A stretch of 64,000 bases of DNA from Muricea muricata (lineage: Eukaryota; Cnidaria; Anthozoa; Malacalcyonacea; Plexauridae), in the NCBI GenBank assembly GCA_963855995.1, contig OY979723.1, positions 6,694,176 through 6,758,175 on the forward strand, in the 5' to 3' direction. The number at the start of each line of letters is the position of its first letter. Positions within the stretch are counted from its first letter, which is position 1. Position numbers and translations under genes: made by a program. The notes below the pieces were generated by a model. That model saw nothing but the letters and a program-made list of their open reading frames with translations. It searched no databases and had not been told where the DNA came from. Below are positions 6,656 to 60,807 of the stretch, piece by piece.

Positions 6656-7138
6656 GCACGGAACTAAGTAAACACATCTGGGATCTGAAGCAAAGGGGTA
6701 TTGAGTATTGAGCGAAATCGTACAGTAATATATCTAAAAGATGCAACTTATGTCGATGGGAGAAATTTTTCATTATCTGTAAACCGGACATGGCTACACT
6801 TAACCGACGAAATGAACTTGTCTCTACATGCAGACATGCTAGTAAATTCCTATTAAAGAACTTTAGGTCTTAATTGCGAATATCCCACTTGAGGTGTAAA
6901 TTGATATGTAAAGATAATCGTTTAACCGTTTGTACATAATTTAAAAGTTCGTTGCTCTATAGATTATATAACATAGGCTGTTTGTCTGAAGAGTGCTACA
7001 CTAAGTGTAGTACGAAACTAAATGGTAATGAATATGCTTTACACAACTTGCTAAGTCTTTGTGTCTTATTTGTTGATTATGCTCTGGAATCCATTGAGCA
7101 CTTTATAATTGGTTTTTATAACCCAACACAAATTATTG
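6652..7138 (+). pseudogene. Second Penelope-like 3' fragment, opposite orientation
   Basis: This starts inside the GIY-YIG domain (TELSK..IW..KQRGI, about 6655-6705) and runs through the 3' untranslated part. About 6690-7025 is a near-exact inverted copy of 5530-5890: same residues, few substitutions, one deletion in the RGI-L region. It extends about 110 bp beyond the point where the minus copy meets its TA array, then meets its own array at 7139. No intact frame remains. Confidence 0.85.
6986..7027 (+). ncRNA. Hammerhead-ribozyme-like core (plus copy)
   Basis: The same arrangement as in the minus copy: CTGAAGA at 6986-6992, a 9-bp stem II with TAA loop (6993-7013), GAAA at 7014-7017, and a short stem III (ACT/GGT with one wobble pair). 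Conserved box spacing in both copies supports a real hammerhead fold. Flanking stem I pairing is weak here too. Confidence 0.55.
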
Positions 7139-7396
<258 letters not shown>

Positions 7397-7529
7397 GATA
7401 TCAAATACAAGAACAATACGCGCACGCGCGCAAATTTTACGCCGGACGATGCAAACGAACACGCGTCGGCAAACTTATTAGAGTAGCGTATGGAAGCATG
7501 TAATTTATACTTACCGTACCCCATTGAGT

Positions 7530-7864
7530 AATTAATTTTTGAAAGAGTCAGGTGACCGACCAACCAGGGTCTGTACCGCTGCGGGAGCGCAGGTAATGAC
7601 CTTGGCTTACGAGGTTGTAGCTTGTCATACCACTTTGCATATAAAATGCCTTCTTTACTGAAAACCCAGTCATCAAACTGACCCGTTCAAATGCTTTATC
7701 CTCTGATTCTTTATTCCAACAGGCAATGCTTTCTGTTACTCGTAATGGTGCCACAAGCTTCAACACCCTTTTTTGAAGTATTCTATAAGTGGTATAGAGG
7801 CGAAAATATTCTCAAAATACACATGGTTTTGTTTATTATGAAGATCATCAACCGCAATGCTTAA
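7530..7864 (-). pseudogene. piggyBac-like transposase remnant (downstream part)
   Basis: Minus-strand reading shows LLDDLHNK..HVYFENIFASIPLIEYFKK (about 7850-7765) and then, in other frames, CGTI-type and WYDK blocks (about 7750-7620). These are the conserved order of a piggyBac-family DDE transposase. At least three frame changes show it is dead. It ends at the TTAA (7861-7864) where Kolobok element 1 was inserted; the upstream half resumes at 12466. Confidence 0.6.
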
Positions 7865-8090
7865 AGGGACAGTCCACCCCCAAAACAAGTACCGCTTATG
7901 CCAAAGTTCTTCACGAGCATACCTTTGAATGGCCATTCATTCGCCTCAACTCTCTTTCGTTACCGAGATATTAGACTTTGTTTCACTGATTTCATGGCCA
8001 TTTCGCCGCGGCCATGTTTGTTTAGCTGGGGGGGGGGGCGCGGGGGCGCAAATATTGCTAATCGTTTAAGTGCTGTGACGTAATTGTGTG
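7865..8090 (+). repeat. Left terminal inverted repeat, Kolobok 1
   Basis: Pairs with 12240-12465 in inverse orientation, with long identical runs (for example GAATGGCCATTCATTCGCCT). It includes a G-rich run at 8030-8045 mirrored by a C-run at 12290. Confidence 0.9.
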
Positions 8091-8177
8091 ATAGAACAGG
8101 AATATAGAGTGAGCACTATCGTTTACCAAACTTGTACGAATTTCGTGGGTTTATTTCATTTCAAAGCGCTTTTAAAG

Positions 8178-8978
8178 ATGTTGCGATCGAGTTCTAGTAG
8201 TTCTTACGAGGCAGATGAAGATTTCATGCTGTCTGAGCAACCTGATATAAAGGTTGAAGAGGACGAAGCAGAATTCTCGCTACAGCCATATCTGTTCGAG
8301 CCGACTAGAAAACTGTCTTCTAGTATGGACAGCGACGAAGAATGCGATGATGAAGATTCCGATTCTTCCTCCGATGACGAGGGCCGCTTGAATAACCTAG
8401 AGTGGTAAGTTTTAATTTATTTGAAAAATATAGCGATATTTTCTATTCGTATATAATATACTAATATTTACGAGACTAGTGTGGTTTATTCCTGGTATCA
8501 TGTATAGATTGGGTGTGTTTATTCTCCTAATTTATAGCAAAACATCCTCAGGTGTAGATGTGGTCACTGCCAAAAAATAGATAGAGTAGATGAATCTGTT
8601 TGCTGTCAAGAAGTCACTGAAATGCTATTTCTTAATGAAGAAGCTGTGACGATTGACAAATTGAAAGAGCCCCTTACTTGTGTAACTGATAATCCAGCAT
8701 TTGCTGCAGTATGCCTAAATCACTGGGTACTCAGAACAGCCTGGTATCAATACAGGCAGCAGTATGAAAACCCATTTGAAGGACCTGAGCATCAAAGAAG
8801 CAGACATGTCGCATATAGGCAATTTGCACGATTGGGTTTGGGTGTTCTTGGGAGACATGTAAGGGTAATCCTACCATCCTGTGCAGTAAATTGTATCAGA
8901 GCACATTTTTCACCACCTGGACCCGAGGATGAACACACTTTTGTTGGTTTTAGGTCACCATCTGAGGAAGATGACTGA
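8178..8978 (+). CDS. P2X7 'ballast' (C-terminal cysteine/zinc) domain protein carried by Kolobok 1
   Basis: Two exons. Exon 1 (8178-8404) begins MLRSSSSS and encodes an acidic Ser/Asp/Glu-rich leader. It ends at a donor G|GTAAGT inside a Trp codon. Exon 2 (8552-8978) follows the acceptor CCTCAG. Together they give EWCRCGHC...CC, then C-TDNPAF-AVCLNHWVL, AYRQF, LPSCAVNCIR and GFRSP. This is the Cys-rich intracellular zinc- and guanine-nucleotide-binding 'ballast' domain of vertebrate P2X7. No membrane segment or P2X ectodomain is present, so it is not a receptor. Length is about 217 aa with no stop, while the transposase in the same element has several. Its role in the element is unknown. An upstream in-frame ATG at 8118 is possible, but 8178 starts the leader. 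Confidence 0.87.
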
Positions 8979-9193
8979 ACACTTCTTGAGTTTGAGAACA
9001 ATCAGTTAAGACCACTGATTTGAATAATACTGGATTATGCATCCAATATTAAATTTTGAATATGTAAATGTAACATTTGACTAAGTGAAGCCATCACAGC
9101 AGAGTAAAGCATTTGCCACAAAAAATGAATGGTCTCGCTTCAGTATGATATAATAATTATAGTCACTTTGAGTGGAATCGACTGATGTGTGCT
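8979..9193. other. Intergenic segment between the two convergent Kolobok 1 genes
   Basis: About 215 bp of AT-rich sequence separating the ends of the ballast gene and the transposase frame. It presumably holds both 3' ends; no clear gene is seen. Confidence 0.5.
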
Positions 9194-10700
9194 TTAATTG
9201 CAGCTTGTTTTTCCGGCTTTTCTTTGCATGCAATGTTTTTTGCTGTGGATTTTTTTTCTTTTCGCCCCCTTTGATTTTTTTTGTTTCAGGATGCTTTCCA
9301 TTAGTGCATGAAGGTGACCATAGCTTTTTTCTTCCTTTATTGGTTTAACCACCCATGTTTTCCGCACTTTAGGAAAGACCAAGTTGTAACGGAGAGAACC
9401 CAATGATGAACCGTAATTGACCACAGCTTGCTTCCTAGAACAATTGTGATTATGGTCAAGGGGAGCAAGTTGTGTTCAGGCAACCATCCCCTCATGGCTA
9501 CAGTGCTGTGTTTTAGGACAATACTTAAGCATCATGGAATGGTGAACTTCAAGATTTCCAGTGTGAAGGAACTCTGTGACCAACTTGAGATCCTTCAGAA
9601 GCTGTTTGTTGAAGACAACCTCCTCAAGGGCCACATGAGCAGCAGTGCCAAATTTTAGCCAAACTTTCGGTTTTCTTTCCCGTCTTGACAGTTCACGATA
9701 AGCACATTTCTTGAAATGCTTTGCACCTCTCCATGAATGCTTATTGGCAACATGGTTCACAATAGACGTCCATTTCTCTAATAAAACATCATAGCTGCCG
9801 TTACATGTAGCTACACTCCACCAGAAATGAGAAGAAACAGACCGGATCCATGCAGTTAGATCCTAAAACTCTTTCTTCTTGCTCTTCTTTGACAACTTCT
9901 TAACCACCCATTTGGAGAGGTGCCAGACATCATACTGGTGCATTATTTTAGAATGTTTTTTTCTCATTTCTGATGTATTGGTTGTGTGCCTATCGGTTGT
10001 TAAACACCTTACTTTGACTCCTTTACTTTTTAAATTCTTTAATACTCGATTGCATCTTTCTGCTTCCATTGGATTGGATGATTAAACTTCAATAACCTGG
10101 ACAACTTAGAAGTCTAGAATTTTATTGGTACTCTCAGCCATAACAGTGTATGTGCCATATTTTGCGCTATGCCCCGGGCTGTCACACCGTCCATCACCAC
10201 AGATATCTATTTTTTTTTGGTGGTCTTTCCAAGCCTTGTTAACTACCGGAAAAAGAAATTTCTTCTGGATATCGTAAAAGAAACTCTTACCAATGAAAGC
10301 CAAATTTAATCGTTGTGCAAAAGAGTTTATATTTTGAAAAGAATTCCCACTAAAGAGTATTGAGCCAACAAGTAACACATTCCCAGCTATGTTTGCATCT
10401 ATTTTTGGTTGTGATTGCCATTTGTTCTTGTGTCCATCCACACATAATGTATGGATCTCCACCATGCTACCAACCAGTGTTTTAGAGACCTCAGCATTGG
10501 GCTTGAAACAGGTAGAACAGGTGACAAACAGCTTATCAAGATTTTCCTCAAAAACTATAAACTTTTTTGCTCAACGGGACTTCTCTTTGTTTCTTCATCA
10601 CTTTCAGAATCTATATCATCTTGACTCTCTGCAGAACTTCCAGGCATGTAGATATCATCCGAATCTGTGTCACTACCTGTACATGTAAGTTCTGAACAGG
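9194..10700 (-). pseudogene. Kolobok transposase core
   Basis: One minus-strand frame runs from about 10550 to 9194 and is broken by in-frame stops near 10106, 10082, 9863 and 9476 rather than frameshifts. One frame change lies near 10570. Upstream is an acidic Ser/Asp-rich linker with GSDTDSDD and then C..C. Recognisable blocks are GDGRCDSPGHSAKYGTYT (first catalytic Asp, about 10190), TDRH (second Asp, about 10005), YDVWHLSK (about 9930), and WIRSVSSHFWW and KHSWRGAKHF (about 9850-9730). These match the Kolobok DDE transposase family, which mobilises the element at TTAA sites. It is the downstream part of the gene beginning with the THAP exon. CAA-to-TAA-type changes suggest decay by point mutation after insertion. 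Confidence 0.85.
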
Positions 10701-10972
10701 TGCTTTTTTGAGGAGATAGTTTTTCAGAGACTAATGTATTGTCGGAACTGACCGATAAGTTACCATTGTTATTTTAATTATTGCATGACGTAAAGGTTGA
10801 TTGACAAAAGTGAGGGAGTGAGTGATCTAGTCACGAAAGAGAGAGATGGTTGAGAGTCGGTGATTGTACTGTGAGACACGAGAGAGAGAGAGAGAGGATC
10901 TAATAGCCCGTGCGCTTGACACCAGTGTTTGTGATTTTATAATTTTAATTTTGTTAGTTTGTTACTGAATTT
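10701..10972. other. Linker or intron region of the Kolobok 1 transposase gene with a GA-rich run
   Basis: Includes a (GA)n run at about 10880-10898 and no clear coding block. It probably contains the intron between the linker exons and the transposase core. Confidence 0.4.
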
Positions 10973-11455
10973 TTAATATATTATTCGAAATAAATTGACG
11001 TCTATACGGTGTGGACATTGTGATTTATCGAGAACGACGTTTGGAGGCAAATTCTCGATAGTATTTCCAGGAAATGTACTAGTAGAAGGTTGTGTATCAA
11101 TAAAACTAATATCAGAAATGGTCAAACAAACAGTCAACAACAGCAATAGGAGTGCCTGGTTTGGCAATATCACTGACATCAACACTAGGTGGACAAACAT
11201 CTGCAGTTTGGATGGCGGTACTTGTCATTGCTACCTGATTTTCACACACTAAAAGTCCACATTGAATGCCAACTTCCTTAGTTAATCTCAAATTTTCTGT
11301 TGGATTTACAGTTACAGAACTTGAACTTGGAGCCTCTGGGCATGCATCTGTCTGAGAATATTCAAATACACCACAGCTAGATGGGCTGTCAATTGGCATT
11401 GATCGCCCCTGATGGATGATGGAAATTGTTGTGCAACAAGACAGTCTTCTATCAT
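10973..11455 (-). pseudogene. Middle exon(s) of the Kolobok 1 THAP-transposase gene
   Basis: After an acceptor (TTGTTAAAG at about 11456) the minus strand encodes a Ser/Pro/Thr-rich linker (SMPIDSPSSCGVFEYSQTDA, TAIQTADVCPP). The frame changes near 11130 and continues FIDTQPSTSTFPGN to about 11000. Such low-conservation linkers join the THAP finger to the transposase core. The exon ends are approximate. Confidence 0.55.
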
Positions 11456-11841
11456 CTTTAACAAAGAGAAGAATTATGTGCAGACTCGAACCATTTTTTG
11501 TGCATTTATTACTATAATATGTTAGGTTTATTGTGTACATTTATGTAATTCATGATAATGGTTCGTATGTGTGTGTTGTGTGTGCGTGATTTTATGATTT
11601 TTTACCTCAATAAGTATTGACTTATTTAGAAAATGTTGTTCTCCCAAGTGTGTATTATTTTATGTCTGATTGAGGAGAACATGCAATTTTCATGCACAGA
11701 ATTTTGTACATGTATCGAACCAAGTGTAAATTTATCTATATTTGTGTATATTTGGGTGTTTGTATACGTTTTAACTGTTAATGAAATTACACGTTCAATT
11801 GTACATTTGATACTGAAGTATTTTAAAGACCAGCGCTTTAC

Positions 11842-12162
11842 CTGTCGCTTTGCTTGTTCAGAGCGCATTTGTGTTCTCATGCGACCTGTCGTTCGTGGCG
11901 TTGTGGGCTCACTGCGGGGAAATATCGAAGGAACTGAGTTCGGTCTTAACCTTGCTCTACTTTGGTAGCCGTGTTCCTCAAAGCAATCAGGCGTAAAATG
12001 CTCCGCACAAACACACGAATTTTCAAGGTTGCGTGGATTTGCTCGTCGAATTCTGGCCATCCATGCTTGGCGCAAACGTTCATCTTTCGGGACTCGGTGG
12101 TAGGTAATGCCTGTAGTTTTCCGTGAGTTGTTGGTACATCCCGGAACCATGCAATGGGGCAT
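11842..12162 (-). CDS. THAP zinc-finger exon of the Kolobok 1 transposase
   Basis: The minus strand starts MPHCMVPGC at 12162 and shows the THAP C2CH pattern: C4 and C9, then C.EHF with the Cys and His (about residues 53-56), plus the conserved W in RQAWMARI and PDCFEE. THAP fingers bind specific DNA, here presumably the transposon ends. The exon ends at a donor (CGACAG|GTAAAG, 11842). It starts about 300 bp inside the right terminus, mirroring the ballast gene at the other end. No stop is seen in the exon. Confidence 0.88.
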
Positions 12163-12239
12163 TTTAAAAAGTATTTGACTGCGTTTATAGAAATTGCCTA
12201 GCTAAAGATGTAAAGCGCTGACTTGAAAATAAAGCTTTC

Positions 12240-12465
12240 CGCTTTGTATCACACAATGACGTCAAAGCGCTCAAAAATACACACAATCCCCCCCCCCCCC
12301 TCCAGTTCGACAAATATGGCCGCGATAATATGCGCAAAAATCAGTTAAACAAAGTCTGATATCTCGGTAACAAAAGAGAATTGAGGCGAATGAATGGCCA
12401 TTCTTAGGCATGCCAATGAAGGACTTTTACATAAGCGGCACTTGTTTTGGGGGTGGACTGTCCTT
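12240..12465 (-). repeat. Right terminal inverted repeat, Kolobok 1
   Basis: Inverse partner of 7865-8090, ending GGGGGTGGACTGTCCTT before TTAA. Confidence 0.9.
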
Positions 12466-12665
12466 TTAACCACATTTTCGCCCAACCTATGTACCTCAGT
12501 GTTTCTCCTCATGCTGTATTTTAATAATTCTTTTTGACTTAGAGGAGGGAAATTTCTTTCTCTCTGATTAGCATGCAGGTTCGTTTGAAATGGGATATTG
12601 TCAACCAAATCTGTATCAATGTACTTCCGGAAAACATCTATAATCGAGTAATCTTACAACGCTGC
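12466..12665 (-). pseudogene. piggyBac-like transposase remnant (upstream part)
   Basis: The minus strand reads DVFRKYIDTDLVDNIPFQTNLHANQ (about 12650-12570), then FPPLSQKELLKYSM. This matches the piggyBac N-terminal region, where a 'TN.YA.Q' block precedes the DDE domain. It joins the downstream remnant at 7864 across Kolobok 1, with roughly 100 residues of the family missing between the two parts. Assignment is moderate because the sequence is decayed. Confidence 0.5.
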
Positions 12666-19838: not shown

Positions 19839-22591
19839 TTATAGGGTTTGTATTAGCCGTTTAAACGAGTCTTTCGAAAGAAATTGGTATTTTTCCACGA
19901 CTTTATCAGATAATTTATTCCATGCAAGTGCGCCTCCGTAAGAGAAGCTCTTTTTTAGAAAATTTGTTTTTGGTAAATGTAGTTTTCGATTATTGCTTCT
20001 CATACCATACGTATCATTCTGACAGGTACTAAATAATTCAGTTAGGTATTTTGGTGTCATTTCTCGTAGTGCCATAAATGTCATTAATTGTTGGCGTCTG
20101 TTAAAAATATTTTCAATTGGTTCCCAATGCAGGGTTTTGAAGATGTCAGTACTTCTAACTTCGTAGCTTGAGCCAGTAATAATTCGTGCTGCCCTTTTTT
20201 GTAATTTGTAAAGCTTATCCATGTGAGTAACGTTTCCTTGCTGCCATACTGTTGAGCAGTAAGTGAAATGTGGCAATACAAAGGCATTGTACATAGTAAC
20301 TAATGCATCTGTTGTAATATAGTTTTTTGCTCTTCTTAGTGAAGCAATGTTTTTGGAAATTTTTTTGCACTGTGTATCGACTTGTTCATGCCAATTGAGC
20401 TTTTCGTCTACAATTACGCCTAGAAATTCTTTGCGCGCTACTCTCTCTATCGTTTGTTCACCTATAACAATTTCTGGGTTTGAGTGTATTTGGTTTAACC
20501 TATTCCTGGATCCTATAATCATATACTCAGTTTTCTCGACATTTAGTGTTAGTTTGTTTGATATCAACCATTTGTGAACTTTCTCAAGGTCTGTGTTGAG
20601 TTTCTGCTCGATTTCCACTGATGAGCCTCCACAACAGGAGATATTTGTGTCATCCGCAAACATCGAAGCTTTTGTAGATGTCAAACAGTTTGGTAAGTCG
20701 TTTATATAAACTAAGAAGAGTAATGGCCCAAGATTTGGCCCTTGCGGCACTCCGCAAGTAATGCTGGCAGTATTTGATATTTCATTATTAATTTTGCAAA
20801 CTTGCTTTCTTCCCGAGAGATAAGATATAAACCATTGTAATGCGTGCCCTTGTACGCCATAAGTTTCTTGGCTATAAGTATTTTGTGGTCAACTGTGTCA
20901 AAGACCTTTTTTAAGTCGAGAAACAGCACACCGTTAATTAGTCCTCTGTCCATGTTTACAAGGTATTGGTTCGAGGAACATAAGAGTGTTGTCTCTGTTG
21001 AATGATGGGTTCGAAAACCTGACTGATTAGTTGATAATAGCTGGTAATTGTCAAGAAACTCACTTAATTGTCGGTAGACGAGTTTCTCAAAAACTTTCGC
21101 AACCGCTGATATTACTGAGATAGGCCTGTAGTTTCCACACTCTGTCTTGTCTCCTGATTTAAAAATAGGAGTTACTTTGGCTAGTTTCATATCATCTGGA
21201 AAAATTCCAGAATTAATGGATAAATTGAAAATGTAAGTTAGTGAATTTACGATGGTTTCACCAGCAGCTAATAAAAGTTTGTTAGAAATTTTGTCAAGAC
21301 CTGCGGATTTTTCATTTTTTATTTTGCTTATCTCGTTTTTGATATCCTCAAAAGTAATGTTTGTGAAGTTAAACACTTGTGAACTGGGCGTAACGTAACT
21401 CATTGGATTGATTTCAGAGCTAGGGAAATTATCTCCTAGTTTTGGACCTATTGTTGAGAAGTATCTTTTGAATTCGTCTGCAATGTTTTTGTCTCCAGTT
21501 ACTTCTACGTTCTCGGTTTTTATTTTGTTGATTATCGTAGATTTTGATTTCTTATTAAGAAGTTCGTTAATTGTTTTCCATCCGTCTTTGCAATTTTTTG
21601 AGTTCTCTAACTTATGCTTAAAGTATTCAGCCTTAGTATTTTTAATAAGTTGGTTTAGATTGTTACAACAGTCTTTGTATAATTCATGGTATCTCGTAGA
21701 GTTATGTTTGATTGCTTTCTTTTTCAAGAAGTCTCTATGATAACTGAGGTTCTTAATTTCATTTGTCATCCAAGGATTATATTCACTTTTAACTTTTCTT
21801 GTTTTTAATGGTGCGTGATGGTCAGCAACCCCCAGGAAGAGCATCTTCCAAGTATGCCAAGCAGCATCTGGATCCGTACAATTATACAAATGCACAGAGC
21901 CAAACGCCTGTCTGAGATCCTGCTGGAAATTGCCCGTGTTAAAGTTTTTAAATTGTCTAGTTTCTACTATTTTAGGTTTTTCCCTCGGAATGCTGACCTT
22001 TCTACAAACGTATACAAGGCTGTGATCACTAATACCCAAGTGGATGACCCCCGAATCTGTTATTTTAGTGTCATCTATTTTTGTGATTATGATATCAAGT
22101 AGAGTCTTATTGACTCTACTTGTTGGGGTTATCCTTGTTGGGTTCTTAATGATTTGTTGCAGTTGATATTCATTAATTAAGTCATTTAGTTTGTTAGTGT
22201 GTTCATTGTAATCTGGAGCTAGAAAGTTACAGTTAAAATCACCTGTTATGATAATATCCTTGTCTTCATCGTCTACTTTTTGTAAAAAGTTGTTAAAGTA
22301 GTCTAGTGGTTCTATATTAGCGCTTGGTGGGCGATACCATGTAGAAATTATCAAAGCTTTACTTTTTGGTTTGTTAATTTCAAGGAAGATTGCTTCAGCA
22401 TTATTCGTCAATAGGTCATGGCGGTCTGTGTATGGAATAGTTCTTCTAACATATATTGCGACGCCACCCCCGTTTCGGTTTCTGTCTTTCCTTATAAGAT
22501 CATAACCAGTGATCTTAACTTCGTCATTTGATATAGTATTGTCTAACCTTGTTTCGTTAATACTTAGTATGTCAAATGTTTGGTTTTGCAT
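19839..22591 (-). pseudogene. LINE-B ORF2: APE endonuclease and reverse transcriptase
   Basis: About 915 residues in two frames joined by a single frameshift near 20868. Endonuclease: SINETRLDN near the start, GGGVAIYVR, STWYRPPS, ITGDFNCNF and GISDHSLVY. RT: KVTPIFKSGDKTECGNYRPI, QSGFRTHHSTET, LDLKKVFDTVDHKIL (motif A), then after the shift PQGPNLGPLLFLVYINDLP and FADDTNI (motif C FADD). It ends with the usual CR1/jockey C-terminus (LPKTNFLKKSFSYGGALAWN). Endonuclease nicks the target, and RT copies the element RNA there. Apart from the frameshift it looks intact. Confidence 0.9.
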
Positions 22592-22660
22592 GAAAATTCT
22601 TAATTCTTCAATATGTTTAAAAAGACTTGCTATATTTAAGTGGCCAATTTTAAAAACCCC

Positions 22661-25881: not shown

Positions 25882-27699
25882 TAATGGCTTATAGTCTACT
25901 AGTTTGCAACTTTGGTTGTCTCCAAAACTCGTTAGTGTTAATGTTTGGCCAAGGTTTGTCAAGTCCCAGAAGCTTTAATTTCCTGTTTATTTCATACATA
26001 TTTCACAGGGGGCATTATTTTTTGTAGTTTACCTGCGTGCTTCAAGAGTGAAATAAACGTTGAAGATAAACATTCTGTTATTCGACCCGTGAAGATTGAT
26101 TTGTTCTCAAATGGAGATAATTTGTTGACAATTCTGGAAGCTAAATTTGATTTGGAACCGAACAGTTACTGCGTTCGTTTTAAGAAAAAATTGGTAATTG
26201 ATGTTATATTAATTATTTTTAGTCATTCTTAGAAAACGCTAACCTGATCTCAGACACTCTTTGTGGACTCTGGCCAATCCCATACGGACGTCCGATAACA
26301 TATTCACAATACATTTTTTCCTGTAATAAGATATATTAATAGTATATAATAACCACACCCTCGTGTCACACAGAAAACTGGTCAATCTCAAAATGTGATT
26401 GATTTCGGTTGACAATATATAATGAGACTCTTAATTCTTTAAGATCTATTGTATGAAAAATAGATTTTACTTTACCCTGCTTTGGTACTGTAATACATCA
26501 CAGATGGCAGCATAGCGTATAAATAATATATTTGTTAAATACGCTCTTCTATAAATGTTGCACAAAGTACAAATATTATACTATAAAAAGTATAGTGTAT
26601 TGTTGTTTTTCCAGTAATTTAGCGTTCTTTTTCCCCGCTAGTTGGATAAGGGAATATCCTTGTTTCACCAAGGCATATTTCATGGAACAACTGTTCGAGT
26701 AAATGCTGAGTTAAATGAACAAAGAAATATAGGTACAGTAAAATTATTTTTGAAGGGAAATATTATTATGTTAATAGCTACAATCATGGAGTTACTCAGT
26801 GCGTTTAGGGCTTTTTCAGATCCGTTAGAATACTTGTACACTTAGTAACCAGTGCTTCTGTTGTGTCTTTTTTTAAAGTTTTTCGACTTAGATTTTTTCC
26901 GTTCTGTAACTTATCCTTCGTTCTTTAAACAATTCACAAAAAGTCGATGATTATGTGTGATGTTTTATCCCCGATCTGATAAACAAGGTGCTCTAACCGA
27001 TTTGTAATAACCCTGACCACGCAACGCATGACACGGGATATTTGTGCAGAATACTAGCGTTTACTGTACCTTTTAAACATATGGTCTGCAGTAGATTATT
27101 TAACTAAAGATATTTTTGTATTTGTACGCGTACATGTACTTGTGTGTCAACAACGTAAAGAACTGAATATTCTATGCACATATGCTGAGTAGAAGTTTCA
27201 TTCATGTTTTTGCTTTTCAAGGTTCTGGCGTAGCTGATGTGAGACGCAAGAACTTGTACAAGAAAAATAAGACCATGGATATTCTAGGAAATAAAGTGAT
27301 TAATGGAAATGACAGGTAGATGCAGGCAATTTATAATTATGATACATTATAATGACTAACTGAAGCACGCCCGGTCCAATGTTGCCAGGTCGACAAAATT
27401 GACAAAGGACAAATGGCCGAATAGCACTAAAAAATATGTAGAAAATAATATAAAATATGCGGAAATTTTCATAATAATTTTCCAAAGAGGCTACTTCACA
27501 GATTGATTATTACACTCTGAAATTGCCATTTCCAACGATCTGGGTACTCAGATTTTCGTCACTACGACCTAGCTTTTTCAATCGAGTTCATACATATTTG
27601 TAGAGGTGATGCAGTGAAAATTTCAGAAAATATTTTGAGATTTGATAATCAAGTCCAAATTCACTCACCTGTTACTCTGCTAAATATACACTGCGATCC
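25882..27699 (+). repeat. 1.8-kb direct repeat, left copy (A)
   Basis: Matches 40207-42019 in the same orientation from TAATGGCTTATAG to CTGCGATCC, about 97-98% identical by eye with a few small indels. Copy A ends directly where the 12.5-kb DUF6589/RecQ unit begins. It carries three coding exons described separately. There are no TG...CA ends and no retroviral features. Confidence 0.92.
26009..27315 (+). CDS. Ubiquitin-like-fold gene, partial (copy A), three exons
   Basis: Exons 26009-26193, 26642-26732 and 27222-27315 have AG/GT borders and compatible phases (0, then 1). The spliced product contains VRPVKIDLFSNGDNLLTILE, a pair of Lys-Leu residues, then LDKGISLFHQGIFHGTTVRV. This resembles a ubiquitin-like beta-grasp: strand, helix with L..L, then a 'K.L.D..SL...GI..G.TV.V' ending. 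It continues GSGVADVRRKNLYKK. Function is unknown; the fold is inferred from pattern alone. A start may lie at the ATG at 25884. The last exon seen after copy B (about 42309-42593) is missing here. Confidence 0.55.
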
Positions 27700-27722: not shown

Positions 27723-27771
27723 CTGTTCGCGGGTTAGGCTGGCATTGGCTCTGGGGAAAGGGAATGAACTT
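27723..27771 (+). repeat. Left inverted repeat of the DUF6589/RecQ unit
   Basis: Inverse of 40149-40197. The sequence just outside (CCCAGAGCAATGCC, from about 27710) can also pair with GGCATTGGCTCTGGG inside the repeat, giving a local hairpin at this end. Confidence 0.8.
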
Positions 27772-29433
27772 TGCAATTTCATTGGCTGCGGTGAGATCAA
27801 TCGATGCACGCCCTGTGCACGCCATTCCTTGTGGGATTTTTGCAGAAATACGCGTGGAATAAAACGCATGGAGTGAATGGACGTAAACAAATTTATCGTG
27901 GTAATTTATCATCTCTGTTAGAATAAAAATATGTATATATTTTTGAAATACAATTGGCGAAGCGTCATTTCGCTGGATAAAAAACTTACATTGGAAATTT
28001 ATAGTAGCTGGAAGCCTGGAACTCAAGAGTAAGGAAATTGCCTTTACTGTCAGTTTTTATTGGCGTTTGGCCCGTGTCCATTTCCTGAGCGTCTGTTTTA
28101 CTGTATTTTGCATTCACGATGAAGTGTTTATGTTTGGAAATTTGCCCGCCAAGGACTGGCAGTTGTTTTGCTATGAAGGCTTTAATACAATAATACTGCT
28201 GTTTGATTTTATTTACAATAAAATTGTATGGATTTATTGGAGGCATTTAGATAATCTATTTTTGAGGTTTTATTGTATTCTAACCTTGAAAGTTTTATAA
28301 GTATAATTTTCTTGTTAATAATAATTGCATTATTTATATGGGTAGCTCAATAATTATAGCATGTGTGGAAAATAAATGTTAGAAAAATGTTCATACAGTG
28401 CATGTCCACATGGCACTTGTTATTTCTTTGTGCACATTTCCACAAGCCATCTCACAATGAGGTATGATATGTTTAGTTGTGAACTCGGAGATCTATTAAG
28501 AAATGACCTGCTAGTAGCATTTGTATTGTGCTCAAGACGTTTTATAAGTGTGGAAAATTGAAGTTGAACACACAGTTGTACAACCTACTCATATTTTAAG
28601 CAAGGTTTGTAAAATGTAATACTTTCATGTATCTATAGTAGTCACACATGAGTCACCACAGTCTCAGATAAAGTAATTTATCAACCAGAATCTATAAACT
28701 GCTTATTACCTTTGGAGTTAGGGCCTCAGAGGTCAAAGGAGTTGAATTAAAAATCCAATGAGCACAATCCAAAGAGTGCAATCTTCATTCCATCGGGGAA
28801 ATCTGGATTTCCACACAGAAAATAGAAGTTCAATAGAAAAAATGAAAATTTGGAGTCCAGGGAATCTGGAATACAAATACCTCTTAAATTACATTACAAG
28901 GGGGGGGGGGGGCTCGATATGAGGCTCGATTAATTGGTTTTTTGCAACTGGGTTTTGGTAGTAACATTATGAGAAGGAAGAAATCCTGGAACTGGGTTGT
29001 GGAACATGTATACAAAGCCATTTAACTGGAAAACAATAGACATACATGATAGGGTGATGTCATTGGCTGGTTATTTTTAGTTTGGTATCTTTTGGGCACA
29101 AAATCAATTCTCAGAGCATCCCCTATGAAATTTGCCCCTGCAACAACTCATTTAAGATCTGTTCCTGAGATTTGCACTCTTGTGTACAGTGTACCCCCAG
29201 CTTAGGGTGCATGGCCTTGTCTATATTATATTTATACAAAAATGGTATTATGATTTTTAAAATGGTTTAAGTAGAGGTATTTTTGGTAAAACCATAATAC
29301 ACAACTAAAATTGAATGAAATTTTGGTTCACATTGAACTTTGGGAACAACGCTAAAAAGTAAAATAAACATAAACACATTTTAGAGACCACCTGGATTCT
29401 AAGTGTTAATCGTTTTATTGTCTGCATATATTA
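27772..29433. other. Left non-coding arm of the DUF6589/RecQ unit
   Basis: No gene recognised. Contains a 13-base G run near 28901 and AT-rich sequence. It may include the promoter and untranslated leader of the DUF6589 gene. Confidence 0.45.
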
Positions 29434-29703
29434 TTGAAAACACGAAAAGTCTGTACTCCGTCTAAATTAATGTACAGACCTAAGCGCATTAGGCCATCCA
29501 CTTCCCCATCACGTCAGGCACAGTCGGACGACACTGCTGCCCATCGTTTGGCCCCGCGCGGGTGTCGTTTGACCAAGTTTGCATCGGCAACCGAGAAACC
29601 CGAATCGCAGCCCTTGTTACAACCTATCGGTAGATTTTCGTCAGCACAAGTGAACAAGACTCGAGGCCATGAAATTCTCCAATTTGCTGGACTACGAAGT
29701 CAG

Positions 29704-30527
29704 GTATTTACAGTGTATGTACTAGACGATATAAAACAGTGTCTAGTGGGGAGGGGAGGGGGCAAAAGGGGCATTTTGCCCCGAGGCCCCAGATGTAAGC
29801 CCCCCCAAAGCATGATAGAAGTAAAAAGCAAGTATCTTTATGCTGGGGGGGGAGGGTACAACTGAAACTTTTGCCCAGAGCTCCCAAAACTGTCTGTATG
29901 GCCCGGGCCAGCAGTGGTGTTGCCAAGGAAGGACGATGGGAAAAATGATCCCCTCCCCAATTACAGGCCACCAGGAAGGGGGGAGCAATTGCCCATGGCC
30001 AAAAGGCTGCACTACATGAAAAAGTACACTATACATAATTTATCAACTAAAAATCCTCCCAGAATTCAAAGTTTTCCCATGGGACCATGATCCAGACCAC
30101 CCTATGAATGTACTATGCTGCTGGAAGATAAAAACAGGAGATTTTGCCCTTGGAGCTCAAATGCCTTTGAACAGTCTGGCCCTAATACAGCAATATTGTC
30201 ATCAAGACCACTTCATTTAAAGTCCAACTCTGAATAAACTGTGGGGGGGGGGGGAAGGGTACATGTCCTACAATGCAAGCCCCAAGGTGTGAACAAACCT
30301 GTTACCAAGGCTTTGTTTCAAAATCTAAGAAATCCAATGTGCCTGCTAGAACTATTAAAATCTAAGTTTCTGCAGTTGTGCCCCCAGATCCTTTATTTAA
30401 ATCACACCGGCACTGATGCCAACCTGCTTTTGTTTCAGGTTTCGCGCAGATTTCGCGATACCTTAAATGGGTTTTAAAAAGGGAGTATATTTTTTCACAA
30501 AGGTAATGTAATTGTTTATTTTTTCAG
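29704..30527. other. Intron 1 of the DUF6589 gene with G/C-run repeats
   Basis: Donor CAG|GTATTT, acceptor TTTTTTCAG. It contains several G8-G12 runs (29752, 29846, 30242) and a self-complementary GGGGCATTTTGCCCC (about 29770). No gene. Confidence 0.55.
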
Positions 30528-32534
30528 ACCTTCCAAACGCAAACAATGTTAACGGAAAACTCTGCAAACCAAAATCCCCGAGGATATTTGTCGCGTAATG
30601 TTTTCGACACCCATTTTGAAAAGCGTGGTTAAGCATACTATGATGAAAGAGATCGACGAACAGTGTAGCAATTTAAGTGTACGCAAAATAAGCAAGTCTG
30701 GAAAGCAACCATCTGTGTTACACGTCACTCGAAAAGAAACGAAAAAAAAGTTGGAGGAATTCACGCGGACAAAAGTGAAGGAAAGAGCACCTGATGTCCT
30801 GGATTTTTTATGCGCTATCGGTGTACCCAAATTGAAAGATGGAGACAAACAAATCCCGCCGTTATGTACTGCATATGGTATCCTCTTGAACAACAGATGG
30901 AAAGAACTCAGTTTGATTCAAAAGGTGATAACGACTCTTTTTGGAGTGGGACATTGTACTGCGAAGGTTATTTTTACATATTGTTTCTGTTTTTATTTTG
31001 CATAGACGTTTGATTGTTGCAACACTCTTGGAATTTGCTAAGTGCGACATTCTTACAGGAATATTTTAGACGATCTGCAAGTTGGCGTTACAGACTACAT
31101 CAGGAAAATGGTTGATGAGGGAAGGGAAATTAGATGGACGTCTGAAAACTTAACAAATATCGTCATCAGCGGATATAAGAATTCGGATATGCATTGGATA
31201 TGCCAGTGTATCATATTTGACAGAGTTTCATTCACCCAGTTGGACGATACTAAACCTTTGGTTGAAGGTATGACTAAATTCGAGAATAAAGAGTACCTGC
31301 TGTCGAAAAGCGAACTGGAATTTCATTGAACTTTTTTCCCTGCCTTATCACGAATTTTATTGAACTATTTCCCTGCCTTAAAGTGATTAAGAACGTTGTA
31401 CCATAGCACATCGAGCATGAATTCTCCAAAGAAATGGCTGAGAAATCAGAAATCACAAATTTGCCGGTGGTTCCGTTTAATCAAAATAAGACGGCAGATG
31501 TTTGCAAGTACTTGGAGGACGTGACGGATGTTTTATACGACATTCATCACAAATCAGAAGACGACACGACAGACGCGGAAGATCCCGGTCACACGCCATC
31601 GTCAAACGAAATGGCAGCCAGAAAATCAGAAATACTGAAAGGCGTAAAAGTGCCACTCTTTGGAGATTTACTTGAAAGGGAAAGGTTGACTGGCGCTAAG
31701 AAGACCAGAGCAGGGTGCAACTTCTCAAGTGATAAATTTGAACAAGTGTTAGAGGTTCCAGCTGTTTGGCATGCCAAACAGTTTTTTTTAAGTGTAAGTG
31801 AATAGATAAATCTCAGACTTTAAATTTTACCAAGCCAAAAAGAGTACAAGCCTATAAAGTTTCTAAATAGACTTTTTTTCGGTAGGGTTTCATAGGGTTT
31901 CATATTTTCATTATAGGGCACTATAACTATTTCATAGCGCACAGGACAATGTCTGTCCTGGCCGCTTATTTTCCGTTTTTTTAATGTTGCAATCGAACAA
32001 GTTGCGCAATCGATAAAAATATGGTAACTCGCTTTCAATTACATTTTTTAGACTGTGTGGAAACACTTGTACAGTACAAAATGCGCAAGAGATATTGGCA
32101 CAATATATTATTTCCGTCAGAACCTAAGCAAAAAGAACGTGACCACCGATGTGAAGAAGAATTTCAAAGCGTCTGCTGAGTTGTTGGAAGAAGTGACGAA
32201 AGCATATATATGCGACGCGTTCATGGAGTGGGCAGGTTTGGTTGACATGGATGGCAAACCTTCAAAGATAACAATTCCACATGCTAACACTAACTTGGCA
32301 ACAAAAAAACAGTTTATGGAAAGTGTCATTGGAAACTTTGTTGACAAGTACATTCTTCAAGATCTAAATGCAGAGAAAACTTTGAACTTAAAGAGGCAAT
32401 CCCATGTAACAGGTATAAATACTAATATGCACGCTTACTCGCTAGGAAAAGAAAATTATAGGCAAATTATACTCATTATAGTGGCGACAAAATTTATCTG
32501 TTTCGACAAACAGATTTCATTTTTGCGTAAATCT

Positions 32535-32641
32535 GTACTGTAATAGATCACAGATGGCGTGCGAAGAACAAAAAAGTACGGCACTGTCGTGACTATTTGT
32601 TCTTCGCACGCAATGACGTCTTCTGTTATCTATTACGTACA
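32535..32641. repeat. Hairpin (MITE-like) in intron of the DUF6589 gene
   Basis: TACTGTAATAGATCACAGATGGCGTGCGAAGAACA on the left pairs imperfectly with the inverse on the right (TGTTCTTCGCACGC...TATTACGTACA), shown here in shortened form. The phrase TACTGTAATA(C/G)ATCACAGATG also occurs once in each 1.8-kb repeat (about 26488 and 40808). Confidence 0.65.
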
Positions 32642-33416: not shown

Positions 33417-33422
<6 letters not shown>

Positions 33423-33611: not shown

Positions 33612-33836
<225 letters not shown>

Positions 33837-54508: not shown

Positions 54509-55454
54509 CTAAATCACTAGGTTGTAAGTATCAAAAATCATGGGTTGAATTAGACCTATTACGTTGATGATATTTGTGATAAGATTTTCAATATCTTCCT
54601 CTTCTAACTGAGCTTCTAATTCCTCTCCCTCATCCTTTGATTCGCCAACTTGAGCCGCACTCTTCTTGCAAGCGAGAGAAGAAACTTGGGATTTGCTCTG
54701 CTGTAAGGTACTCACTTGCATCGAACAAAAAAGAGCCGTCGAGCTTTCGCGCTTTTCTCATTGATATAGAACGTTATTAGCATCCACCTTGTGATCGGTT
54801 TGCTCTCCAGCTTCGAACAACTTGATATATAGATAAAGCTTTTGATTCTCAATAAATCTCTTTATCAGCACTGTTGGCTTTTCAGCGCCCAACCTTTTGG
54901 CAGTCGTTCTAAAGCGAGACATGAACTTAGGTCGTCCGGCCTCTGGCACTCAAGCGATGTACATAGTGTCAAGTTTCGTCGCGTACGCTAGCATAGCTTT
55001 GTCAAGAATGTTTCACGTTCCAGTGCATACTTATGCTTCCCGCTACCAAGGTGGTTTTCAAGGTCGGAAAATCGTTGAAACGACTTAAAGTGCTACTAAA
55101 CCCAAAATGGGTTTTTGTTGATTCAGATAGATCGTAAAAAGTTAGTTAATAAGTTCAAGATTAGTTTTTGTGTTAAACGCTTAGTTTCGGAGATATATCG
55201 GGTCAAAGTCGGAAATTTTGCCAGTTTTTGAGAAAAAGTCGCGCCGCCGATTTCGAAGCAAGAGGCCTGGGTCCGTGGAACACATTTTCGAAAACAACAA
55301 GACTTTTCTATTGAGTGACACCAATGTTGTGGGATTTTCGTTCGATAAATAACCAAACGTTGTGTCGTTTATGGGTTTTCAAACACTGCTGATAAAGACA
55401 ATGGTATATTCAAATACGAGATACCTTTTTGGAAAATAATTCGTCTGTAGCGGC

Positions 55455-55645
55455 TAAATGAATGAAGAAATATGTGAACTTCGTCCGACGCAAAAGAGAT
55501 AAATAGACGCCAACACGTTCAAAAGCACTTCACTGAAGATTGTTTTGAGTGCGGTTCTGTCACTATTGAGAAGTTCAAGACTCCAAGGCCTAAGAAAGAC
55601 AGTTTGGAGCTTGTGTCTTTGCTACGTTGGACACCAATAGAGAGC
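55455..55645 (+). pseudogene. THAP zinc-finger remnant in Kolobok 2
   Basis: VNFVRRKRDK, then after a stop and a frame change HFTEDCFECGSVTIEKFKT and PRPKKDSL. F.RRKR and H-F-T-E-D-C-F-E are the C-terminal half of a THAP finger (compare EHFTPDCFEE in Kolobok 1). The N-terminal C..C half is not recognisable. It starts about 360 bp inside the left end. Confidence 0.65.
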
Positions 55646-57369
55646 AAAGTGAACGCACAAAATGCGTGAAGCGAAGAGAAGTAAGCTGATTTTGCATACT
55701 AAATAACTCGGTGTATATATTTTAGTGAAGTCGCTTAACCAAACGATCTGTACTGGCGAGTACAAACTTGGGCACCCCCTCTACAATTGATTAACTATGC
55801 CTCCTAATCAATTTAAGAACGGGTGCCTAAAATTTTCAAGTTAGGGGGGTGTTACCACAGTGAGGTGGTACGTTAACGGTTGGCAATGTTTCTCTGCCAG
55901 TCAATGATATTTAATGTGAGAACATCAAACAGGAAATTTTATATGCCCATTTATCTGTTGTCAAGTCCATGTCTTTGAACAATATCCCAACACCTTATTA
56001 TTAAATACAATGATTGAGTAAAACATGAACAAGCATCCCGAACCGTTATTTCAAAAACGGAACTCCCCCCGGGATGATAAATTTTGTGAATATCTTCATT
56101 ACACCCCCAAAAACATTTCAATTTGACTTTGGAGTCGCGGGGAAAGAAATACTGACTTTGTCCGCTTTGTACAGATCTTGCCAATTTTTGCCGCTAAGCG
56201 ACCGGACTATTTGGTTTATAAAGCGTAAAGTCGAAAATTTAAAGTTACTGCGTATCATTTGCATATTATATATCATTCAGGATTCCTGATATAGATGCTA
56301 AAATGCATATACGTTTTTTTAATTATAATTCACTATTGTCTTTTGTATGAAATTTAATATCTGTGTCATGTCCTGTTTATAGAGTGTCATGAGCCATTGG
56401 TGAAAGGCGATGACGCCTACCGATGATGGAGCCTTCACATCATAACAGCATGTTAGTGCAGCAACTGAAACTGCAGCAATGGTGACTGATCTGCCCGTGG
56501 AACCAAAAGGAATGACAATACTAATAGAATATATTGAATTTTTACTTGCAGAGATATGTACAAATTGGTCATTGCAGGAAACATCCATACCACTGCCACA
56601 AAGAAAATGGACAATATCCTTCCTTTCCCCCTGACATCCAAAAACAGTCCAACACTCCATCAAAACCTAGAAATATTCCCCTTGATATTTAAGCATGCAT
56701 CATTAATTATTTTCACCCCTCCCTTCCCCAGGCATCTCAAAACAGTTTTTCTGCGTATTCCTCTGGGTATCATAAATTTCCTCTGTTGAGGTATATGTAT
56801 CTTTTCTGGAATTACCCAATATGCTCTTAGGCAAAAATGTTTTGAATCTAATGAACAGCACAGCATTCAGGTGTGAAAAAAGCAGAAATTAGTTATATAA
56901 AGTCCTTAAAAATAGTTCTGATATTTAGCAAAAAAATAACAGACAATGCAGATACTAGTTAAATCTATAGTATTTATGTTAAAGCATGCAAATATTTATC
57001 AGTTTAGTTTTATGTAAACAGCACTAAACTAAACTGATATTTCATGTTCACCATGCAAACATACATAAAGCTTAATGCAAAAAGTTGTTCAAGAAAACAT
57101 CTAAACTATTGTTTATAAACATATCAACTGTTAGGGGAACTTATTGTTATGTTCATCATGTAAGATACTGTAAATGGGTTGGGGGCTTGGGGGCTTAATT
57201 TCTAACATTTGATCCTCAATGATGAGCCAATATAAATGCTGTTTTGGGACCTTCTTGCATATTTTTATATGTATGTTTGGCATGTTGATCATGTATACCT
57301 GTACACTACATGGTCCATGATCTAAAAAGGTCAATAAGCACTTCTCCCATAACACAATTTGATATTTAG
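55646..57369. other. Interior of Kolobok 2, no recognised gene
   Basis: AT-rich with short ORFs of no recognised family (for example 56319-56663 -). The transposase core expected here is absent, either deleted or replaced. Confidence 0.45.
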
Positions 57370-58138
57370 TTACTGCCTGTCATCACTTGTTTCTAATTTT
57401 TCATAGCCAGTGAACCATTTGCCTTTGATCTCATAGGTTGATTGAATAATATTGTATGTACAAGCAGGTAAAAGAATCCTCTTGTTTTTCAGCTGGCCAT
57501 GTACCATACAAGTAAATTGCCTGTAGGCAACAACTCCAAGAAAACTAAATGAAAAATATTGATGTTATACTTTATATATATATAATGTTCATTAAACCAA
57601 AGTTATGTGGGTCAATATGTTGTTTACTTTTGCTTTTCACCATACTGGCTGTAGCGATGACCATCGCAAGTTTTAAAATTCTCAGCTGTATGTTCTAATC
57701 ACAATTAATTATAAGAAGTAGCAGGAAATCAAGGATAATCTATAATGCATTTCAGTGATGCTTCCTTATTTTGTTCCCCTGAATCTGAGCAAACGTTTCC
57801 CATGAATTTGATGCAGTTATCAATTTCTCGGCAACAATAACATTCTTTAGCATTTTGTAATAGTTCCATTTTACAATTTCCACAGCTAAACCTAAAATCC
57901 AGAAGCGATATTTTACTACACACACATTAACACATTCGTATACGGTAAGTGTAAAGTCTATGTTATGTAAAATCAGTAAAATTTACCATGTCATAACAGA
58001 TTCGCTTTCGCCAAAACGGAGTTGTTGCAGTCTTTCCTTGTCTTCTTCTCGTCTTCGATTATACTCTTCGAGTCAAGTTTCATCTGGCATGGGTTCATCA
58101 AAATAGGCCTCCATGTCACTATTGTCGTCGTCGTCCAT
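57370..58138 (-). pseudogene. P2X7 ballast-domain gene in Kolobok 2, three parts, broken
   Basis: Exon 1 (58138-57987): MDDDDNSDMEAYFDEPM, an acidic start, with one in-frame TGA and ending in a split Trp codon (ATG ACA TG|GTAAAT). Exon 2 (57891-about 57729): FSCGNCKMELLQNAKECYCC, REIDNC and LKCIIDYP, the Cys-rich zinc site. A final exon (57544-57370): LGVVAYRQFTCMVHG, RILLPACTYNII, WFTGYE, stop. These are the consecutive blocks of the P2X7 ballast domain (C..C..CC, then AYRQF, LP.C). The middle part (AVCLNHWVL in Kolobok 1) is not found intact. The intron after exon 1 lies at the same codon and phase as in Kolobok 1. Confidence 0.75.
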
Positions 58139-60807
58139 GTTGCTTCACGATCGGCTTCAATGCTGCTGTTCTCGCTTTCTTTGGCATATTAGATGAAGCA
58201 TCGCTGTAAACACTTGAATCAGATTGTAAGCTGGACATTTTTCTCTTACTTTTGACTTTTTGTTAGTATTTTCTCGGTTTGTCTTAGCAAAATTGGTCGA
58301 ACTGTAATGTTTTTCTCTAGTAATTGAAACACGAGCGTTCCACGGATCCAGTCCCCCAGCGTGCGCTACTTTTTTCCAAAAGTTCCGACTTTGACCCGTT
58401 ATATCTCCGAAACTAAGCGTTTAACGCAAAAACTAATCTTGAACTTATTAACTAACTTTTCACGATCTATCCGAATCATCAAAAACCCATTTTGGGTTTA
58501 GTAGCACTTTAACGTATCTGTTTTCTGGGCACGGAAACAGCTTAGACGCTTGTGAAATTTCCGCGGTTTCCACGGCGTTTACAGAGTAAAGGTACGCTTT
58601 TGTTTTGTTTTTGGTCGTCGCAGCTTTTCGATCACGAGCCCCTTTACCACCTTTGGGGTCCGAAAAATAAATTCTTAATTATCTCCACCTCGTATTCTGT
58701 TGCAATTTGCTGCATGGCCAATAAGTTGAATGCACTGTGGTAGCACCCGGGGTTGTCCTGACGAAGGAAAATCTTCTTGATTTCAGACCTGTCTAGGTAT
58801 AAGTTGGTTAACAACAATGTCGATAATCGCGAGTACTGGAAAACATGAACGAACGTCAAGGACCCTAAACAATCGTCTCGCCTTGTCATAGCTGCGAAAA
58901 AGTGCCATGAATCCCACTCTTTCCAATCCAATCGGATTAGCTTTCACCATAGGAAAGCTTTCACCAGAACTGAGTTCGAGTCGAGTTCGCGAAGGTGGTT
59001 AAGTCAGGCTTCGTCTTGGTTGATGTCACGTAGTAGGTGACCTTTCCAGGTCATTATATTCTTCTTAGATTGAGTAACAACGTATTCCATTTCGATTTTC
59101 TCTTCGTTGTCAATGGCTGATAAATCCTTCAAAGTCGTTTCAATGCCTTCGAAAATAGAAGGTATCAACTCACACCTGTCATATTTTAGGTCATGTTCAT
59201 GAGCACATTGAGTGTTGAAATCTCCATTATTTGCATCGCCCAGGGCATACGGCCTGCAATGGTCGACGACACGAGAGCTGGTCACAACGTGAACCCGAAA
59301 TATCAAGAAACATGTAGTTATATTTTTTTAGTTTTCAGGAAAAGAAAATAACCGATTATATTGCATACCTTGTAGTCACTTGTAGTGTGACCTCGCCCAT
59401 ATTCATAGCCTAACATCTCAATTACTTGGACGTCATCGGAGGCTATTGCAACATCTGCAGTAAAGTAGTCCAATCCTTGTAATGATTTCCTAATAGAAGC
59501 ACTGCATACATTCAAAGTTCTGCATCGACTACTGTGGCTCATTGGGGCGAATCCAGTTTCCTGGTAATAGCTCTGGTATTGCTGCACCTCTTGTTCAGGT
59601 ACAATGTGCGAACAACATTGGGAACTGTAACTTTTGTAGATAGCTTCATGGTCTTTTATTCAAATGCTGGTGACAAATGTTAATAAATGGTCAAGTTTAT
59701 CAGCTGAGATGCGAACACGAGTAGCTTTTCCAACGGTAAGTGGAGAACCCGGCCAAAATAGTAATGTGCGATGGCGAGCCACGTTAGAAAGGTATCTAGT
59801 GAGTCCTGAAACCCAACTTTTTAGGATGGGAAGGAGACTTTGTCGGCCATGATTGGTAATATCTGCCGTCTTATGCTCCATTGACATCCATTATTGTAGC
59901 AGTCGACAAGGGATTTCATTAGCGTCTTATCAACACTCTCCTGTCGTCTTCTAGTGTTGATTGTACAGAATATTCGTGCTGGCTGGGGCAATTTCCTCTA
60001 AAACTGCGGAAACAACTTGTTTCGCTTTACGGATATGGCGTCGCTTGGTTCTCTGCGAAGCTTTTTCCACGTGCAGCAAGAAATAAATTGAGGTCTGTCG
60101 GACTTTGTTTTGTGTCTCTTTCTTCTAGAAGCGAGGAATCAGATGGTGTGTATGTTGTGCATGGGGTGTCTATGCGGCAAGTTTTTGCGTGTAATGCAAT
60201 TCTGGACTGTTTTTAGCTGATGTACTTGTGACTTCGTCCCCCTATTAAATTTAAATCACAGTTGGACTGACATTGCATAATTTGGAACAAAATTTTATAA
60301 ATTACACACACTATCCTGTTAATAATAATGCTAGCTTTTCAGTTTCTTCTTCCAAAACTTGCATCACTGAATCTGATGTTCCATTTTCCAAGTCCTTCAA
60401 TACTCCGCGGCACTTTTTGCAAATATCTGAAATATCCACGGTACGCATGTTCTTTCGCTTTACAATGAATTTTTCGGGAAGAAATGAAGACAATTGCCTG
60501 AGCCAGGGGCGACAACTCTCCTGTATTTCGAAATATTATTTTCGGATCCTTGCGGCACTCTACATGTAGTATTACCTCCTCTTGTCAAACTTGTGCCTAG
60601 GGCTGCACGGTGGTAGGGACAGATCGTCATTGAGTCGATGCTTTCTTTGGGCTTGTCAGACCACGCCACCCGAGACAAAATGAGACCAATCTCATCCGTA
60701 AACCCCGAAAAGCTATGTGACGACAAAAGCCTTGTGATATCCTTTGGACATGACAATAAGGAATAATTTTGGTCTGGCGTTTTCGATCCTTGGCGTCGTA
60801 ACCGCAA

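What the first reader, a model, noticed from the sequence alone, without database searches (positions are those of the whole stretch)
7865..12465. A Kolobok transposon carries a P2X7 ballast-domain gene opposite its THAP-transposase
Seen: intact TTAA-flanked ends, a spliced plus-strand gene without stops encoding the Cys-rich P2X7 C-terminal domain, and a minus-strand THAP + transposase with several stops. Known: this domain is described as an ancient module captured by P2X7 in jawed vertebrates and found stand-alone in invertebrates. Inference: many 'P2X7-like' invertebrate proteins may be transposon cargo, so Kolobok could have been the vehicle for the domain. That the cargo frame outlasted the transposase frame suggests it was maintained.
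Basis: partly seen in the sequence, partly recalled or inferred. Interest (0 to 1): 0.9.

Follow-up and report, generated by a model that had tools for sequence, protein, structure and literature searches.

The report
Kolobok transposon with its KolX gene
This is an old jumping gene of the Kolobok group that carries, besides its broken transposase, a small gene related to the zinc-binding tail of the immune receptor P2X7; that link was already published in 2022, so the find is a good confirmation rather than a discovery.

Summary
A Kolobok element spans 7865-12465, between TTAA copies (7861-7864, 12466-12469), with ~235-bp inverted ends at 80% identity. On the + strand it encodes a predicted two-exon, stop-free 217-aa protein matching Pfam P2RX7_C (E 3.3e-16). 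On the - strand it encodes a THAP domain (E 4.1e-19), then a transposase relic with four in-frame stops and a frame change. A second element with unrelated ends (55089-58508) holds decayed pieces of the same gene pair in the same convergent layout. That argues against a single accidental capture, though the evidence is weaker.

Kojima & Bao 2022 (PMC9587614) report that KolX, the second protein of the Kol0 lineage of Kolobok, is the P2X7 ballast domain, and that P2X7, and probably nanor, arose from it. The gene is a native accessory gene of a known transposon lineage, not incidental cargo. That the ballast frame "outlasted" the transposase is not significant (P = 0.23), and the second copy's ballast gene is broken. 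dN/dS and genome-wide copy counts could not be obtained. Verdict: already known, low interest.

The parts
7861..7864 (.). TTAA target-site copy, left end of element 1
   Evidence: read directly
7865..8096 (+). left inverted end of element 1
   Evidence: 79.7% over 236 aligned positions to the right end
8178..8404 (+). KolX-1 exon 1: acidic, low-complexity N-terminus
   Evidence: predicted splice; no transcript
8405..8551 (+). KolX-1 intron, GT-AG, phase 2, splitting the Trp codon just before the first zinc-type Cys
8552..8978 (+). KolX-1 exon 2: ballast (P2RX7_C) domain and stop codon
9197..10570 (-). transposase catalytic region, relic; four in-frame stops
   Evidence: Pfam RNase H-like match weak, below cut-off; no related solved structure
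10558..10773 (-). probable transposase linker piece, in a different frame from the catalytic part
   Evidence: no Pfam match; assignment by position
11115..11540 (-). open frame between THAP and catalytic part, probably transposase linker
   Evidence: no Pfam match; assignment by position
11842..12162 (-). THAP DNA-binding domain exon (start codon at 12162)
   Evidence: PF05485, E 4.1e-19; exon end inferred by eye from a donor-like GT
12244..12465 (-). right inverted end of element 1
12466..12469 (.). TTAA target-site copy, right end of element 1
55085..55088 (.). TTAA, left end of element 2
55089..58508 (.). element 2: second Kolobok-like element with unrelated ends; inverted arms of 136 nt (TTAA included) at 96%
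55360..55666 (+). decayed THAP relic of element 2
   Evidence: (tblastn E 0.008); no Pfam match when read through with X
57370..58238 (-). decayed KolX-2 relic of element 2 (frame change and stops; first zinc-type Cys lost), read by eye
   Evidence: (tblastn E 8.6e-5); no Pfam match
58509..58512 (.). TTAA, right end of element 2

Best explanation
Element 1 is a decayed copy of a Kolobok DNA transposon of the Kol0 type. Its two convergent genes are a THAP-DDE transposase (-), which cuts and pastes the element at TTAA, and KolX (+), a small zinc-binding protein of the P2X7 ballast family. Shown here: ends, TTAA copies, THAP, the ballast match, the open KolX frame and the broken transposase frame. 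Taken from the literature: KolX is the second protein of Kol0, and P2X7 and probably nanor descend from it. Inferred: KolX serves the transposon as an accessory factor, probably by binding nucleic acid or the transposase and regulating or targeting transposition, and this copy can no longer make a working transposase. Confidence is 0.93 for the identity and about 0.4 for the accessory-factor role.
For: TTAA flanks and inverted ends; P2RX7_C at E 3.3e-16 for the spliced protein; THAP at E 4.1e-19; alignment to P2X7 residues 476-594 (chain 9e3m_A) with W-C-x-C-G-x-C, CC, C and PSC positions matched, although that match alone is weak, E 0.097; a second element with different ends and pieces of the same two genes in the same layout; both KolX genes are predicted to have an intron splitting the same Trp codon. 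Literature: PMC9587614 (KolX = ballast); PMC6004289 passages (Kolobok transposases usually carry DDE, THAP and H2CH motifs).
Against: No match to a Kolobok-named profile came up in the Pfam scans (the only profile library I used). The catalytic region only weakly resembles an RNase H-like family, below cut-off, had no related solved structure, and its catalytic residues were assigned by eye. No tree places this copy in Kol0. Element 2's genes fall below Pfam thresholds. No direct evidence for any KolX function was found. The structure prediction of the ballast part was unusable (mean pLDDT 48.7), and the full KolX-1 had no solved relative at E 0.001.
Confidence: 0.93

Rival explanations
1. Single accidental capture: the element picked up a host ballast gene once, as passenger cargo.
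For: The ballast frame is open while the transposase is broken; ballast genes outside P2X7 have been treated as host genes (PMC7016195).
Against: A second element with unrelated ends in the same window carries relics of the same pair in the same layout. KolX is reported as the second protein of Kol0, a lineage found in vertebrates, annelids, cnidarians and sponges (PMC9587614).
Confidence: 0.04
2. Domesticated ballast gene: the host has co-opted KolX of this copy and keeps it intact while the transposase decays.
For: 217-aa frame with no stops beside a transposase with four stops and a frame change.
Against: The contrast is not significant (P 0.233 that all four stops fall in the transposase). 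The gene still sits inside complete ends and TTAA copies. No transcript, dN/dS or synteny evidence could be had.
Confidence: 0.08
3. Two adjacent unrelated relics (a ballast gene and a THAP gene) that happen to lie between chance inverted repeats.
For: Transposon-rich window with several other relics.
Against: ~235-bp inverted ends with exact TTAA copies and RR/YY termini enclose both genes, and the layout recurs in element 2.
Confidence: 0.01

Closest known systems
Kolobok, Kol0 (Kolobok0) lineage with KolX, type Kolobok-1_XT (Kapitonov & Jurka 2007, not seen, as cited in PMC9587614; Kojima & Bao 2022)
   Same: TTAA copies, RR/YY termini, a transposase plus a ballast-fold KolX protein; THAP as in Kolobok transposases (PMC6004289 passages)
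   Different: No difference in kind was found. The copy is decayed, and whether the family is listed in Repbase could not be checked. PMC9587614's main text does not mention THAP (0 occurrences), and I did not find the strand of KolX or an intron in it stated there (supplements not seen).
Stand-alone ZCD / nanor-like proteins (PTHR36981; Rump et al. 2020, PMC7016195)
   Same: Short protein, variable N-terminus, C-terminal ballast domain with the three cysteine clusters
   Different: Rump et al. treat these as host genes; their main text has no word beginning with 'transpos'. This one lies inside a transposon.
P2X7 receptor C-terminal ballast domain
   Same: Cysteine clusters W-C-x-C-x2-C, CC, C and PSC, and the RH..AYR stretch, align
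   Different: No channel part; the single-sequence match to a solved P2X7 chain is weak (E 0.097).
KolobokP and other Kolobok lineages (KolobokE, D, H)
   Same: Transposase plus an accessory protein; in KolobokP the accessory gene is also on the opposite strand (PMC9587614)
   Different: The accessory protein there is a nuclease or helicase, and KolobokP has long terminal direct repeats; the longest direct repeats listed around element 1 are 24 nt.

Membership tests
Kolobok superfamily | TTAA target-site duplication | tested here: met
   7861-7864 and 12466-12469; element 2: 55085-55088 and 58509-58512
Kolobok superfamily | termini 5'-RR ... YY-3' (separates it from piggyBac) | tested here: met
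   AG...TT in element 1, AG...CT in element 2; the rule is from PMC9587614
Kolobok superfamily | N-terminal THAP domain | tested here: met
   PF05485, E 4.1e-19; a usual feature per PMC6004289 passages
Kolobok superfamily | DDD/E RNase H-fold transposase with C/DxxH and H2CH motifs | tested here: inconclusive
   PF21787 E 0.0021, below cut-off; no related solved structure; DxxH-like and zinc-like motifs seen by eye, motif pattern partly recalled
Kol0 lineage | encodes KolX with the ballast domain | tested here: met
   PF20478 E 3.3e-16; fold itself not shown (unusable)
Kol0 lineage | position in the transposase tree | not tested
P2X7 ballast (ZCD) family | seven conserved zinc-coordinating Cys in three clusters | tested here: met
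   WCRCGHC, VCC, TC and LPSC in the spliced KolX-1 against the motifs in PMC7016195 section 9, compared by eye; the first Cys is lost in KolX-2
P2X7 ballast (ZCD) family | GDP-contact residues of rat P2X7 | tested here: inconclusive
   RH and one arginine (IR) align with the P2X7 chain, the others do not appear to (by eye); binding not testable here

The most novel reading that the evidence does not exclude
The 'ancestral synteny' of stand-alone ballast genes with two neighbouring markers from sponge to sea urchin, and the THAP-ballast fusion protein of Ixodes (PMC7016195), are the transposon's own convergent THAP-transposase/KolX pair read as host genes. On that reading nearly all invertebrate stand-alone ballast genes are Kol0 genes, and the receptor P2X7 and nanor are separate captures. 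The first half is my inference; the captures are already claimed in PMC9587614.
Probability: 0.45. Interest if true: 0.35.

Novelty: already known. Interest (0 to 1): 0.17.

Why it matters
P2X7 is a major inflammation receptor whose tail came from elsewhere. This window gives an independent view of the donor: a Kolobok transposon that still holds its ballast gene, plus a probable second, differently ended element with the same gene pair. It supports the published origin story without adding a new principle. What it may add is a layout (convergent THAP-transposase and KolX, intron just before the first zinc Cys) that could make it easier to recognise other 'stand-alone ballast genes' as transposon genes.

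Tried and rejected
Maintained cargo: rejected as unproven. The contrast in stops is expected by chance in about one case in four (exposures weighted transitions 2: transversions 1).

Structure route: AlphaFold2 on exon 2 alone gave mean pLDDT 48.7. I did not run a fold search on it, since matches would mean nothing.

Solved structures: the full 217-aa KolX-1 found nothing at E 0.001. The ballast part alone, at E up to 10, gave 3 rows: two P2X7 chains (E 0.097 and 0.21) and an unrelated chain between them (0.16). By itself that is weak; the Pfam profile carries the claim. The transposase relic gave 1 row, unrelated, at E 1.5.

Element 2: its pieces do not reach Pfam at E 10, neither apart (0 of 6 frames matched) nor read through (0 of 2). 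It rests on tblastn (E 8.6e-5 and 0.008), on second and third rank among 2002 window segments for the KolX-1/P2X7 profile (E 0.0005 and 0.51) and for THAP (E 0.67 and 0.85), and on shuffles (8, 0, 0 and 2 of 5000). With KolX-1 alone as query the two KolX-2 pieces ranked second and fourth (E 0.0011 and 0.92). The fragments for the shuffles were chosen after looking. The four transposase pieces of element 1 had no match inside element 2.

Viral contigs: 3 stretches matched a pattern, 0 encoded a relative. Rfam, gathering threshold: 0 matches.

Literature: 7 searches. The two that asked for all of P2X7, ballast and transposon/transposase terms each returned one paper, PMC9587614. The broader lists were capped (20 of 823, 40 of 162, 20 of 42), and the library lacks most subscription papers.
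Full report
WHAT IS THERE. Its ends are inverted repeats, 135 nt at 88% without gaps (TTAA included) and ~235 bp at 79.6% with gaps, E 7e-53 to 2e-52. The left side holds a + strand gene with ATG 8178, exon 1 8178-8404, a 147-nt GT-AG intron and exon 2 8552-8978, encoding 217 aa without a stop. The splice is predicted, not seen in transcripts. The protein matches Pfam P2RX7_C at E 3.3e-16 (60.2 bits, cut-off 23.5). Its cysteine clusters (WCRCGHC, VCC, TC, LPSC) line up with P2X7 residues 476-594 of chain 9e3m_A (the output names no species; human by recall), though that single-sequence match is weak on its own (E 0.097).

On the - strand from the right end come a THAP domain (PF05485, E 4.1e-19), linker frames without a Pfam match, and a catalytic region over 10570-9197 with four in-frame stops (positions 10108, 10084, 9865 and 9478). 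The piece before it is in another frame. The catalytic region matches PF21787 only weakly, below cut-off (E 0.0021), and had no related solved structure. Its assignment as a Kolobok transposase therefore leans on TTAA, RR/YY termini, THAP and position.

A SECOND ELEMENT. A tblastn of these proteins against the window found a second ballast-like match (57379-57531, E 8.6e-5) and a second THAP-like match (55361-55549, E 0.008). They lie inside another TTAA-flanked element, 55089-58508, with inverted arms of 136 nt (TTAA included) at 96%; a blastn of element 1 found no match to these ends at E 1e-3. Again the two genes converge. By eye the ballast relic is broken (a frame change, stops and loss of the first zinc-type Cys), yet a predicted intron splits the same Trp codon as in element 1. 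Pfam does not recognise these relics (0 of 6 frames, 0 of 2). In shuffles, the four pieces were matched or beaten by 8, 0, 0 and 2 of 5000; the pieces were picked by eye beforehand. I take element 2 as probable (about 0.85), not proven.

WHAT IT MEANS. Kojima & Bao 2022 (PMC9587614; I read parts 1-4 of 6 of the text and passages; no supplements) state that KolX proteins of the Kol0 lineage show clear similarity to the P2X7 C-terminal part and adopt the ballast fold. They write that earlier reports of ballast proteins had not pointed out that these belong to Kolobok, and they conclude that P2X7 arose by fusion of a P2X4-like gene with KolX and that nanor is probably a domesticated KolX. Passages of PMC6004289 say that Kolobok transposases usually carry DDE, THAP and H2CH motifs. 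The main elements of the finding are thus part of a described lineage. The convergent layout and the intron position are details that I did not find stated in the text that I read.

MAINTENANCE. Weighting each frame by its one-step changes to a stop (KolX 108, transposase 246), the chance that all four stops fall in the transposase is 0.233. In element 2 the ballast gene itself looks dead. dN/dS could not be computed, because close copies were not obtainable: the protein database was switched off, and the genome search did not answer nine times.

HOW IT LIKELY WORKS. THAP is a DNA-binding domain, and in such transposases it presumably reads the element's ends; the DDE core cuts and rejoins at TTAA (established for the kind, not tested here). 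KolX has an acidic N-terminus and a ballast domain with the cysteines of the two-zinc site. Its presence beside the transposase in differently ended elements suggests a role for the transposon itself. My best guess is an accessory that binds nucleic acid or the transposase and tunes transposition (about 0.4). No data here bear on this directly.

A TESTABLE SIDE READING. PMC7016195 (abstract, sections 9-11 and 14, passages) reports that stand-alone ballast genes lie beside two markers from sponge to sea urchin, and that an Ixodes protein fuses a THAP-like ('TAHP' as printed) domain to a ballast domain. Its main text has no word beginning with 'transpos'. The layout seen twice in this window suggests that these neighbours may be the transposon's own transposase. 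I could not see Figure 6 or the gene names, so this remains inference.

VERDICT. Observation confirmed; main interpretation correct in substance but already published; maintenance claim unsupported. Interest 0.17.

Noticed in passing
window 55089-58508: Second TTAA-flanked element with inverted arms of 136 nt (96%, TTAA included) and decayed THAP (+) and ballast/KolX (-) relics in convergent layout; ends unrelated to element 1.
   Followed up: yes
window 27723-40197, flanked by 25882-27699 and 40207-42019: A ~12.5-kb stretch with ~49-bp inverted ends (94%) that encloses two DUF6589 matches (31407-31802 and 34190-34930, +) and a Helicase_C match (35674-36324, -), set between two 1.8-kb direct repeats at 97.6% identity. 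It looks like another large DNA transposon; Academ-like is only a recalled guess.
   Followed up: partly
window 19842-22660 (-) and 48387-49988 (+): Two LINE-type retrotransposon relics with reverse transcriptase matches; the first also has an endonuclease match, the second an ALKBH8_N match.
   Followed up: no
window 50255-50402 / 50632-50780: Short element of about 0.5 kb with inverted ends of 149 aligned bases at 82%; both ends hold TTAAAGGGAAATGGCAACAAAA, so it may be a further TTAA-type miniature element.
   Followed up: no
window 52464-52574 / 62042-62157 and 53471-53738 / 61788-62047: Inverted repeat pairs (87-90%) that enclose element 2 and could be the ends of a larger ~9.7-kb element into which it is nested.
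   Followed up: no
window ~7109-7486 and ~33595-33866: Long (TA)n-rich microsatellites read as Ile-Tyr repeats.
   Followed up: no
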